Below, piece by piece: positions 7,795-10,961 of a stretch of 64,000 bases of DNA; within the stretch, counting starts at the first letter, position 1; every line of letters starts with the position of its first letter. The notes below the pieces were generated by a model. The model searched no databases and was not told the DNA's origin. It worked only from the letters and a program-made list of their open reading frames with translations. Position numbers and translations under genes: made by a program. This DNA comes from Desulfobacterales bacterium. GTDB lineage: Bacteria; Desulfobacterota; Desulfobacteria; Desulfobacterales; Desulfosalsimonadaceae. The stretch covers positions 62,001 through 126,000 of the forward strand of contig JAGXKN010000004.1 of NCBI GenBank assembly GCA_018335195.1, read 5' to 3'.

Positions 7795-9012
7795 GTGATA
7801 CGCCGAATCGAGCTTGTCAATTTCATGTCCCATCCGCACACGGTGATCGAGCCTGCAAAGGGCCTGACCGTGCTCACCGGTGGAAACAACACCGGCAAGT
7901 CCGCCGTGATTTCCGCATTGCAGACCCTTTGCCGGAATATTTCCGGAGATTACATGGTCCGGCACGGCCAGAAGGAATGCCGCATCATCGTGGAAACCGG
8001 GGAAGGCAACGTGCTGGAATGGAAGCGGAAAAAAGGGACGGTGAGCTACACGGTAGACGGCCGGGAAGTGCACCGCCTGCGCGGGGCCGTGCCCGATGAC
8101 CTGCACGACCTGCTGCGCATGCCCCAGGTGGAAACCGAGGGTGAGCCGTTTGACGTCCATTTCGGAGAACAGAAAAAACCCATTTTCCTGCTGGATGAAT
8201 CCCCGGGCCGCAGGGCCACGTTTTTTGCTTCCTCCTCGGATGCCATTAAGCTTATCGAGATGCAGGGCCGGCACCGGGCGCGGGTTCGCGAAGCCAGAAG
8301 TGAGGAAAGCCGACTGGCCTCGCAGTCCGCCCGCCTCCAGCAGAGACTTATGACACTGGCACCGCTCGACGAACTGGAAGATCAAATCAAAGGCCTTGAA
8401 GCCGAGCATGAAGCCATCGGGCAGCTTGCCCGGCACCTGTCCGAGCTTGACCGGCATGTGGATGCCATGATCCGCACGGAACACATGGTCAAAAAGCATG
8501 CGGATTTGGCCGGAGCCGTGGCCTCCCTGGCCCCCCCGCCGGAACTGGCAGAAACGGGTTCGCTGGCCTGGATGATCCGGCAAATGAATTACCAGTCCCG
8601 CCGGATCAAGAAGGAATCCGAAGCTGCAAAAGCTGTCTCCCGGGTTCCGGCCCCGCCGGAGATGGCGGATGTCGGGCGACTCTCTGGGCTGATTTCGCAA
8701 ATGCAGCGGATTTCAGCCAGTGTTGACAAAGCTGCAGCCCGGGGCCGGGTGCTCTCCGATTGCCCGGCGCCGCCTGAAATGATTGACATTGCGGGGTTAC
8801 GCCGGCATATTGAATCAATGGAAAAGGCCGGAAAAAGCCTGCAAAAACGTTCCGGCGAGCTGGAGGAGGCGGAAACGCGGCTTGTTGAGGCTGAAAAAGC
8901 GCTTCGCCGCTTTATTGACGCTCACAATATCTGCCCGACCTGCGGTCAGCCAATGGATGCAGACCGGGTCCTGGACCAGTTCCACGGCACCGGGGAGCAG
9001 GCGGGACAATGA
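7795..9012 (+). CDS. Rad50/SbcC-like ATPase, N-terminal half ending in a zinc hook
   Basis: 405 residues from a GTG start. Residues 1-10 (MIRRIELVNF) are the usual SMC/Rad50 N-terminal strand and GGNNTGKS at 29-36 is the Walker A loop. Residues 165-370 are largely coiled coil, interrupted by three LAPPPEL/PAPPEM units spaced exactly 39 residues apart (245, 284, 323). CPTCGQ at 380-385 is a Rad50 zinc-hook motif, and the protein ends 20 residues later. No signature motif or Walker B follows, so it lacks the C-terminal half of a Rad50. That half is encoded at 10284-10961. The stop overlaps the next start (ATGA at 9009-9012). It probably works with the Mre11-like nuclease in DNA-end processing or defence. 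Confidence 0.8.
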   Translation: MIRRIELVNFMSHPHTVIEPAKGLTVLTGGNNTGKSAVISALQTLCRNISGDYMVRHGQKECRIIVETGEGNVLEWKRKKGTVSYTVDGREVHRLRGAVPDDLHDLLRMPQVETEGEPFDVHFGEQKKPIFLLDESPGRRATFFASSSDAIKLIEMQGRHRARVREARSEESRLASQSARLQQRLMTLAPLDELEDQIKGLEAEHEAIGQLARHLSELDRHVDAMIRTEHMVKKHADLAGAVASLAPPPELAETGSLAWMIRQMNYQSRRIKKESEAAKAVSRVPAPPEMADVGRLSGLISQMQRISASVDKAAARGRVLSDCPAPPEMIDIAGLRRHIESMEKAGKSLQKRSGELEEAETRLVEAEKALRRFIDAHNICPTCGQPMDADRVLDQFHGTGEQAGQ

Positions 9013-9980
9013 TGCGCTGCGATTTTATGGAAACCGGATACAGGGGACTGCTGGCCATCGGTGACCCTCACCTGGAAGGACGCGTTCCGGGTTTCCGAAA
9101 GGATGATTACCCGGCCCGGATACTGGAAAAGCTCCGGTGGTGCCTGGACTATGCCCGCCGGGAAAGTCTGCTGCCGGTGATCCTGGGGGACCTTTTCCAT
9201 TTGCCCAGAAGCAACCCCAACTGGCTGCTGGTCTCCGTGATGCGCCTGTTTGACCGGGAAATCCCCGGAATATACGGCAATCACGACGTGCATGAAAACA
9301 GCCTGACCACAGACGACAGCATCCGGGTGATTGCCGAATCCGGGAACTTGGTGCTGCTTGACGGAGATCGTACATACCCGGCCATTATCGGCGGCAGGCG
9401 GGTGATCATCGGCGGCACGCCCTGGGGACAGCGCCTGCCCGGGGAATTCATCCATACGGAGGACTCTGAAACAAATGATGATCGGCCGCTTGTGATATGG
9501 CTTGCCCATCATGATACGATTATGCCGGGATACGAGGAGCAGGGTCGGATTCATGTTCGTGAAATACCGGGTGTTGACCTGGTGATCAACGGGCATATCC
9601 ATCGGTTCCTGGGTGAAGTGCAAAACGGTACCACCCGCTGGATCGTTCCGGGAAATATCAGCCGCAGATCCAGAAGTGATGCGGCCCGGAGGCATGTACC
9701 CGCGGCTTTGCGCGTAGACATTGATGTCTCGGGTGCAAGCTGCTGCCATGTCACCGTGCCCCACCAGCCGTTTGAAAACGTGTTTCACGAGGCAGTTGAA
9801 CAGGAGGCAGAGGCCGAAGCCGGGTCGGCTTTTGTCGCCGGCCTGACCGAACTCCAGGCCCGGCGTACCCAGACCGGGCAGGGACTGTCGCTGTTTCTGG
9901 AAAAAAACCTGGATCAGTTTGATGCAGATGTGGCAGAAGAAATTCGGCAACTGGCTAAAGAGGTGATCCAAGATGAATGA
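9009..9980 (+). CDS. Mre11/SbcD-like metallophosphoesterase
   Basis: 323 residues of the calcineurin-like phosphoesterase fold. Metal-binding motifs in order: GDPH (18-21), GDLFH (60-64), GNHD (90-93), AHHD (166-169), GHIH (195-198). The order and spacing fit Mre11/SbcD-type nucleases. The last 100 residues are a charged helical tail that could contact the ATPase. It overlaps the ATPase half by 4 bases and the coiled-coil gene by 8, so the four genes are probably made together. ATGs at 9009, 9012 and 9027 are all possible starts; 9009 gives the coupling. Confidence 0.85.
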   Translation: MMRCDFMETGYRGLLAIGDPHLEGRVPGFRKDDYPARILEKLRWCLDYARRESLLPVILGDLFHLPRSNPNWLLVSVMRLFDREIPGIYGNHDVHENSLTTDDSIRVIAESGNLVLLDGDRTYPAIIGGRRVIIGGTPWGQRLPGEFIHTEDSETNDDRPLVIWLAHHDTIMPGYEEQGRIHVREIPGVDLVINGHIHRFLGEVQNGTTRWIVPGNISRRSRSDAARRHVPAALRVDIDVSGASCCHVTVPHQPFENVFHEAVEQEAEAEAGSAFVAGLTELQARRTQTGQGLSLFLEKNLDQFDADVAEEIRQLAKEVIQDE

Positions 9981-10287
9981 ATCCGGCAATACCAAGCAGA
10001 GCATCGAGGAACTGAAAAAGCGGTATGAAACCCTGCACCGGAAAAAGATCCAGGCCGAGGCCAACCTGGATAACGCCAAAAAACAGCTTGAAGAGCTCAA
10101 GGAACAGACCAGGAAGGAATACGGCACAGACGATATCGAAGCCTTGAAGAAAAAGCTGTCAGAAATGCAGGCGGAAAACGAGCGCCGCCAGTCCGAGTAC
10201 CAGCAGCAGCTCAGCAAGGTGGAATCCGATCTGGCCGCGGTTGAAGAAAAATATAAACACGTGGATTCGCAGAACAGCCGATCATGA
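9973..10287 (+). CDS. Small coiled-coil protein
   Basis: 104 residues, almost all charged heptad-like helix (ELKKRYETLHRKKIQAEANL onward), with no Cys and no membrane segment. It lies between the nuclease and the C-terminal ATPase half and overlaps both. A Rad50 split at its hook would lack the returning arm of the coiled coil; this protein is the right kind and place to supply or bridge it. That role is inference only. Confidence 0.7.
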   Translation: MNESGNTKQSIEELKKRYETLHRKKIQAEANLDNAKKQLEELKEQTRKEYGTDDIEALKKKLSEMQAENERRQSEYQQQLSKVESDLAAVEEKYKHVDSQNSRS

Positions 10288-10961
10288 GCACGGCGGACAA
10301 AAGCCCTTTGAGGTCGCCTGCAGGCGTGCGCCAGCGCTTTACACGTCTGTCTGCCTGGCGCGAGCAGGCCAGAAACGAGGCTGCCCGGACCGAAACCCGG
10401 CTGGAGGAGATTCGCAGATATCTTTCGATTTCCGAAAAGGTCTCCGAAGCCCTGGAAAGCCTGAATCAGAAGTTGTTCCGAGAGCTTCTGGACGTAATCG
10501 AGGACAAGCTGACCATTGCCCTCCGGGAGGTCCTTGAGCAGCCCATTTCCCTGAAAGCCGAAGTGGAATGGAAACGCAATGCCGCCAGCGTGGAATTCTG
10601 GATCGAGCGCGAAGGTCTTCGGGAGGATATATTAAAAGGGCAGGGCGGGTCCGTGGCCAATATTCTGTCCGTGGGCCTGCGCATGTTTGCCCTGACCGCC
10701 CTGGATGAAGGCCGCCACAGGCGCTTTCTGGTTTTAGACGAGCAGGACTGCTGGCTGCACCCGGAACTGGTTCCGCGCCTGGTCAAGATCGTCCACGATG
10801 CCGGCAGAGCCCTGGACTTTCAGGTGCTGATGGTTTCTCACCACGATGCGGACTCGTTTGCCCGGTACGCAGACCGCATCTATCGCCTGGTGCCCCGGGG
10901 CGAAGACGGGGTGTCCGTGGTACCGGCGGATCAGGGGCCGGCGGCTGAAGATCCGTTGTGA
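10284..10961 (+). CDS. Rad50/SbcC-like ATPase, C-terminal half
   Basis: 225 residues. Residues 25-85 are coiled coil. KGQGGSVANILSVGLRMFAL at 118-137 is in the place of the ABC signature helix of Rad50/SMC proteins. RFLVLDEQDCWLHP at 147-160 is Walker B with the D-loop region, and SHHD at 185-188 is the H-loop. There is no P-loop in this protein. It complements the P-loop protein at 7795-9012, so a complete ATP site would need both chains. Start ATG 10284 overlaps the coiled-coil gene's stop. Last gene of the four-gene unit. Confidence 0.8.
   Translation: MSTADKSPLRSPAGVRQRFTRLSAWREQARNEAARTETRLEEIRRYLSISEKVSEALESLNQKLFRELLDVIEDKLTIALREVLEQPISLKAEVEWKRNAASVEFWIEREGLREDILKGQGGSVANILSVGLRMFALTALDEGRHRRFLVLDEQDCWLHPELVPRLVKIVHDAGRALDFQVLMVSHHDADSFARYADRIYRLVPRGEDGVSVVPADQGPAAEDPL

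What the first reader, a model, noticed from the sequence alone, without database searches (positions are those of the whole stretch)
7795..10961. Rad50 split into two proteins around an Mre11-like nuclease
Four overlapping genes encode a P-loop/coiled-coil protein ending in a CPTCGQ zinc hook, an Mre11-type phosphoesterase, a small coiled-coil protein, and a protein with only the signature helix and Walker B. Canonical Rad50/SbcC carries all ATPase parts in one chain with the hook in the middle. Here an active site would have to be built from two chains. Stop/start overlaps at 9009-9012, 9973-9980 and 10284-10287 indicate co-translation, so this is not a chance split. I know of no described system with this layout. 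It could be a DNA-repair variant or a defence complex.
Basis: partly seen in the sequence, partly recalled or inferred. Interest (0 to 1): 0.85.

Follow-up and report, generated by a model that had tools for sequence, protein, structure and literature searches.

The report
Four-part split Mre11–Rad50 DNA-end machine
The ATP-driven half of a universal DNA-break repair machine, always thought of as one long protein, is here encoded as separate pieces beside its nuclease, in bacterial chromosomes, plasmids and phages, where it seems to stand in for the usual version.

Summary
Window 7795-10961 encodes four overlapping genes. A has the Rad50-type P-loop lobe and a stalk that ends in a CPTCGQ hook. 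B is an Mre11-type phosphoesterase. C is a small coiled coil. D has only the Rad50 C-lobe (signature, Walker B, H-loop). It is not a frameshift. All four genes occur in 18 of 19 D-positive genomes of the phylum and contiguously in 11 of 11 D-positive Planctomycetota. No intact fused A+D was seen. The same set is in five distinct phages and in 27 of 27 viral contigs of one phage clade. On two Bacillota megaplasmids B is fused to A while C and D stay separate. D's predicted fold best matches Rad50 C-lobes crystallised as separate chains. The nucleases form one group apart from SbcD, YhaO and T4 gp47 (support 100/99). Genomes with the set nearly all lack SbcD and YhaO: 1 of 19, 8.0 expected. Best reading: a four-subunit Mre11-Rad50 variant, shared with phages, that replaces SbcCD/YhaON in DNA-end repair. 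Defence is not supported. Biochemical function is inferred. Ten open-access literature searches found no description.

The parts
7795..9012 (+). gene A: Rad50 N-lobe (Walker A, Q-loop) + stalk + C-terminal zinc hook; 405 aa, GTG start
7879..7902 (+). Walker A GGNNTGKS (A residues 29-36)
8530..8925 (+). stalk region with proline-marked repeats of 39 aa (PP marks at A residues 246, 285, 324); the number of repeats varies among relatives
8932..8949 (+). CPTCGQ zinc-hook motif (A residues 380-385), near the C-terminus instead of mid-chain
9009..9980 (+). gene B: Mre11/SbcD-type metallophosphoesterase, 323 aa; overlaps A by 4 bases
9063..9071 (+). phosphoesterase motif I D-x-H (B residues 19-21)
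9276..9287 (+). phosphoesterase motif GNHD (B residues 90-93)
9973..10287 (+). gene C: small coiled-coil subunit, 104 aa; overlaps B by 8 bases
10284..10961 (+). gene D: helix + Rad50 C-lobe (signature, Walker B, H-loop), 225 aa; overlaps C by 4 bases
10638..10652 (+). ABC signature region GQGGS (D residues 119-123)
10725..10748 (+). Walker B FLVLDEQD (D residues 148-155)
10839..10844 (+). H-loop (D residues 186-187)

Best explanation
The four genes encode a four-subunit Mre11-Rad50-type complex in which Rad50 is divided at the zinc hook. A (P-loop, Q-loop, rising stalk, hook) and D (signature, Walker B, H-loop) together build one ATPase head. Two A-D heads sandwich two ATPs, and each site uses A and D of one head plus the D signature of the other. 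B, the nuclease, docks at the root of the stalk and cuts DNA ends when the heads cycle. The terminal CxxC of A pairs with another A through zinc to tether ends. C probably supplies part of the returning coil that A lacks. The complex processes and tethers broken DNA ends for recombination, and it takes the place of SbcCD or YhaO-YhaN in the bacteria that have it. Shown here: the anatomy, conservation, linkage, B-A fusion, D fold match, shared kinship with phage sets, near mutual exclusion. Inferred: assembly, metal and ATP use, nuclease activity, the role of C, direction of transfer.
For: Halves map to opposite ends of one-chain Rad50. Phage A' 4-45 matches Rad50 profile positions 3-44/878 and phage D' 124-210 matches 804-893/895. 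Against phage SbcC profile phrog_77 (967), A' matches 299-427 and D' 874-952. D model: best chains 1f2u_B Z 10.2 and 9a9j_B Z 10.0; also 1us8_B 8.4 and 1f2t_B 8.0 (Foldseek 6.1e-7). These are Rad50 C-lobe chains separate from the N-lobe chains of the same entries (N-lobe chains 1f2u_A/C), so a two-chain head can assemble. Conserved set: 18 of 19 phylum genomes, 11 of 11 Planctomycetota, five phages, 27 of 27 viral contigs. A has Walker A and a CxxC 9-35 residues from its end in 35 of 35. B-A fusion on two megaplasmids, hook at the fusion's end, C and D separate. In G164 and G131 A is unlinked yet intact. Exclusion: SbcD or YhaO in 1 of 19 D-positive genomes against 8.0 expected, P 0.0004; inside family f1 0 of 8 against 8 of 12 (Fisher 0.005). 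Phage neighbours: RecA-like protein, UvsX, RuvC and SSB, resolvase and UvsW helicase.
Against: No biochemistry. The A model is poor (pLDDT 62.5, pTM 0.28) and the D model moderate (71.4, 0.42); no complex could be predicted. The window's B has no significant solved relative (none; best E 0.09, Vps29), so Mre11 type rests on motifs, linkage and weak SbcD/Mre11 matches of a phage B' and phrog_100. Exclusion statistics ignore phylogeny; 229 of 395 genomes have neither SbcD nor YhaO, so the function is often dispensable; G427 has both the split set and YhaO. Phage Magritte's A' has no CxxC and Mvi-JY20's B' has altered metal motifs. C matches across groups are weak and coiled-coil-prone.
Confidence: 0.82

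Rival explanations
1. An anti-phage defence complex (Lamassu-, Gabija- or Septu-like) built from an SMC-like ATPase and a nuclease.
For: A matches LmuB at 3.8e-11 and D matches mad3 at 9e-9 in PADLOC.
Against: Those matches are short or coiled-coil and spread over many ATPases; B has no PADLOC match. Seven neighbours have no PADLOC match at E 1e-10; six of them scanned with Pfam are metabolic, channel or unknown-function families. Flanks are syntenic within families and do not look like defence islands. Phages themselves carry the set beside recombination genes.
Confidence: 0.07
2. A tether or loop-forming SMC-like machine in which B is structural or acts on another nucleic acid, so that it is not a repair nuclease.
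For: Long modular stalk with 39-aa steps; B has no close Mre11 relative among solved structures; one phage B' has altered metal motifs; an RNB ribonuclease gene sits between C and D in a family f69 genome.
Against: Phosphoesterase motif residues are conserved across 12 diverse sequences; near-exclusion of SbcD and YhaO; phage linkage to recombination genes.
Confidence: 0.08
3. A decaying or frameshifted SbcCD operon.
For: G370 has a 259-aa ORF with pieces of A and D and no Walker A or signature.
Against: Intact, overlapping, conserved ORFs in many families and two phyla, in phages and with A unlinked from B-C-D in two genomes.
Confidence: 0.01

Closest known systems
Mre11-Rad50 / SbcCD
   Same: same ATPase motifs, CxxC hook, Mre11 phosphoesterase motifs, linked genes
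   Different: Rad50 is two chains cut just after the hook, plus a small coiled-coil subunit; B is in a separate clade
T4 gp46/gp47
   Same: phage-borne SbcC/SbcD-like pair needed for recombination (record annotation); gp46 has CxxC and Walker motifs
   Different: gp46 is a single chain with the CxxC mid-chain (288 of 560); gp47 groups with the one-chain nucleases
YhaO-YhaN (AAA_27) pair (names recalled)
   Same: nuclease plus SMC-like ATPase; occurs in close relatives that lack the split set
   Different: one-chain ATPase of about 1180 aa with AAA_27; YhaO is in another clade
Mre11/Rad50 fusions (Yoshida et al. 2011, PMC3175470; passages and section 6 read)
   Same: Mre11 fused to Rad50; the paper notes that a Bacillus phage and an Anaerostipes fusion lack one P-loop segment, as in the B-A fusion here
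   Different: no separate C-lobe gene is reported in the passages and section read; I could not fetch that phage
P. furiosus Rad50 two-chain construct (PDB 1f2t/1f2u; that it was a man-made cut is recalled)
   Same: N- and C-lobes as separate chains forming one head
   Different: man-made; here it is the natural state

Membership tests
Mre11-Rad50 / SbcCD | Rad50 N-lobe with Walker A | tested here: met
   (35 of 35 A proteins)
Mre11-Rad50 / SbcCD | Rad50 C-lobe with signature, Walker B, H-loop | tested here: met
Mre11-Rad50 / SbcCD | both lobes in one chain with the hook mid-chain | tested here: not met
Mre11-Rad50 / SbcCD | CxxC zinc hook motif | tested here: met
   (35 of 35); zinc binding itself not testable; absent from one phage A'
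Mre11-Rad50 / SbcCD | Mre11 phosphoesterase motifs | tested here: met
Mre11-Rad50 / SbcCD | score above the curated SbcD or SbcC cut-off | tested here: not met
Mre11-Rad50 / SbcCD | Mre11 capping and helix-loop-helix domains | tested here: inconclusive
   short conserved C-terminal part of B; not modelled
Mre11-Rad50 / SbcCD | ATP-regulated nuclease complex | not testable with these tools
   needs biochemistry
Lamassu (LmuB) | one-chain SMC-like LmuB with an LmuA effector | tested here: not met
   split ATPase; no effector match among B or seven neighbours
YhaO-YhaN | YhaO-type nuclease and one-chain AAA_27 ATPase | tested here: not met
T4 gp46/gp47 | one-chain gp46 ATPase and gp47-type nuclease | tested here: not met

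The most novel reading that the evidence does not exclude
A single ancient fission of Rad50 at its hook gave a four-subunit machine that spread with phages and giant plasmids and entered bacterial chromosomes, where it displaced SbcCD or YhaO-YhaN repeatedly. It keeps a hook on a stalk without a covalent return strand, tunes stalk length in 39-residue steps, and runs ATP sites made of three chains, so A, C or D could exchange on a tethered complex. This would be a mode of regulation that one-chain Rad50 cannot have.
Probability: 0.4. Interest if true: 0.88.

Novelty: new variant of a known kind. Interest (0 to 1): 0.78.

Why it matters
Rad50 is one of the most conserved repair proteins, and its single-chain layout with a mid-chain hook underlies the models of how it tethers and cuts DNA ends. 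A natural, widespread version cut at the hook lets the role of chain continuity, the hook and the return coil be tested directly. It also explains phage proteins now filed separately as 'exonuclease', 'ATPase' and unknown, and may explain fusions earlier noted as lacking one P-loop segment. And it adds a case of phage-shared machinery standing in for a core host repair complex.

Tried and rejected
Defence system: rejected. Frameshift or decay: rejected. Finding window-like D in viral contigs: none. Tree of D with SbcC/YhaN C-lobes: unresolved, the split group was not one side of a branch. Solved relatives of B: none significant. D profile against solved sequences: weak only, best 6qpw E 0.0068. 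A fold search: weak SMC/Rad50 matches at low TM from a poor model, so A's fold rests on sequence. Whether A's hook lies far from the head or folds back could not be decided from the low-confidence model. Promoter and terminator scan near chance: 3 against 1.2 and 7 against 4.5 expected. Bacillus phage 0305phi8-36 could not be fetched. Literature: ten searches of an open-access PMC library gave no description of a split Rad50; subscription papers and preprints are largely not covered. Papers seen: passages of PMC7824862, PMC12153180, PMC3175470 (also section 6), PMC12474458, PMC5105663; others only as search listings.
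Full report
What is there. The window holds four overlapping genes: A 7795-9012, B 9009-9980, C 9973-10287, D 10284-10961. A starts with a Rad50-like nucleotide-binding lobe (Walker A at residues 29-36; Pfam AAA_23 8.5e-8 at residues 4-52; Rad50 profile 3.3e-11). It continues into a helical stalk and ends with CPTCGQ 20 residues from its end. B is a calcineurin-like phosphoesterase (PF00149 6.3e-7) with the Mre11 motif order (motif names recalled). 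C is a 104-aa coiled coil. D has a long helix, then the ABC signature, Walker B and H-loop, and no P-loop.

Is the split real? Yes. A profile of D finds 19 of 395 genomes of the phylum at E 1e-5, in 13 of 245 genera. I read the surroundings of all 19. A-B-C-D is contiguous in 13. In 2 (L064, L066) there is a gene between C and D; the one I scanned (L066) has an RNB domain. In 1 (G268), A-B-C and D lie near the ends of different contigs. In 2 (G164, G131), B-C-D is together and an intact A lies elsewhere. One (G370) has only a 259-aa remnant without Walker A or signature. Thus all four genes are in 18 of 19. Outside that draw the set is also in other genomes of the window's family. In Planctomycetota D is in 11 of 294 genomes, and all 11 have A-B-C-D in order; a twelfth genome, G450, found earlier, has it across two contigs. 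In 35 of 35 A proteins examined there is a Walker A, and a CxxC 9-35 residues from the C-terminus. A loose Walker B pattern matched in 4, always in the N-lobe and never after the hook. No genome had an intact one-chain A+D.

Phages have it too. Five distinct phages carry the pieces: a 485-kb uncultured phage (A', B', D' in the same order, spaced out); Microbacterium phage Magritte (A', B', C', D' scattered; its A' lacks CxxC); Tunturiibacter phage Tunturi_5 (A', B', D', a weak C'); Bacillus phage vB_BboS-125 (A', C', D' and an unannotated B'); and Microcystis phage Mvi-JY20, with A'-B'-C'-D' contiguous as in the window (its C' match is weak, E 0.04, and its B' has altered metal motifs). A scan with the Bacillus phage D' gave 27 viral contigs; 27 of 27 have A', C', D', B', and every A' ends in a CxxC. 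These 27 are one clade and not independent. PHROGs files A' as 'exonuclease' (phrog_16465), C' as unknown (phrog_18563) and D' as 'ATPase' (phrog_15167), while A' and D' match the two ends of the lobes of its one-chain SbcC family phrog_77.

Natural fusion. Of nine plasmid records with D' I read three. On Paenibacillus polymyxa pSC2 and an Aneurinibacillus megaplasmid, B and A form one chain (841 and 937 aa; B part first, then A, with a CxxC near the end), followed by separate C and D. On a Bacillus velezensis plasmid all four are separate. This links B and A physically and shows that the cut between A and D is kept even when other joints are fused. A 2011 paper on Mre11/Rad50 fusions (PMC3175470, section 6) noted that a Bacillus phage and an Anaerostipes fusion lacked one P-loop segment. 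A separate D gene would explain that, but I could not fetch that phage.

Structure. The predicted D (pLDDT 71, pTM 0.42) matches Rad50 C-lobes first: 1f2u_B Z 10.2 (rmsd 3.8, 142 residues) and 9a9j_B Z 10.0, then SMC C-lobes at 8-9. Z near 8-10 is modest, but the top rows are the expected family and cover the domain. 1f2t/1f2u contain N- and C-lobes as separate chains (that this was a deliberate cut is recalled), so a two-chain head is known to fold. The A model is too poor to use. Phage A' and D' align with the first and last residues of Rad50 profiles.

The stalk. A's stalk carries proline-marked repeats 38-40 residues apart. Chain lengths such as 405, 443 and 482 fit added units; overlapping matches of the window A to single homologues point the same way. 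The pattern is clear in the window's family and patchy elsewhere.

One origin? In a tree of nucleases, 16 that travel with a split ATPase are separated from 8 that travel with a one-chain ATPase (SbcD, YhaO, T4 gp47, a Bacillus phage nuclease) with support 100/99; a different sampling with Mvi-JY20 gave 97/97. The D tree does not resolve this. The root is not known, so this is consistent with one fission and does not prove it. Direction of transfer between phages and bacteria is not shown.

What it replaces. SbcD (TIGR00619, E 1e-20) is in 75 of 395 phylum genomes, YhaO in 100 of 395, either in 166; 229 have neither. Of the 19 D-positive genomes, 1 (G427, YhaO) has either; 8.0 were expected, hypergeometric P 0.0004, without correction for kinship. 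Inside the window's family, SbcD/YhaO matches at E below 1e-10 are in 0 of 8 genomes with the set and in 8 of 12 without it (Fisher 0.005). Two of those 8 genomes are only 60-76% complete. Swaps appear inside families f1, f36, f69, f79 and f112. G000's only SbcC-profile match is an SMC-like protein, judged by its start.

How it most likely works. See Best explanation. A and D make the head, B the nuclease, A's terminal hook the tether. C is likely the missing part of the return strand: in the chromosomes and the Bacillota phage clade it lies next to or near D, and one C' also matches D's N-terminal helix (1.2e-4), although coiled coils match each other easily. Neighbouring phage genes point to recombination: a RecA-like protein, UvsX, RuvC and SSB, resolvase and UvsW helicase. 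In the chromosomes the neighbours are ordinary and none of seven in the window has a defence match.

Novelty. Ten searches of an open-access library found no description of a Rad50 split into separate genes; jumbo-phage and giant-phage papers describe SbcC as one protein in the passages read. I class it as a new variant of the Mre11-Rad50 kind: it works like that complex, but one defining feature, the one-chain Rad50 with a mid-chain hook, was tested and not met.

Noticed in passing
L067:2198-2977 (genome G370): A 259-aa ORF joins pieces of A and D but lacks Walker A and the signature; decay or assembly error.
   Followed up: partly
L064:4694-6656 and L066:3355-5418: A ribonuclease-like gene lies between C and D in two genomes of family f69; the L066 copy has an RNB domain by Pfam, the L064 copy was only compared by eye.
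   Followed up: partly
L129:5924-6904 (Bacillus phage vB_BboS-125): A 326-aa SbcD-like ORF is missing from the public annotation.
   Followed up: yes
L029:3006-4244 (phage Magritte gene 247): Annotated 'ASCE ATPase' but by eye it reads like a sliding clamp; not tested.
   Followed up: no
YhaO and SbcD also tend to avoid each other in the phylum (9 genomes with both, 19.0 expected), and 229 of 395 genomes have neither.
   Followed up: partly
G164 (L097) and G131 (L098): A is unlinked from B-C-D and sits after a phosphomannomutase-like gene (by eye) in both genomes.
   Followed up: partly
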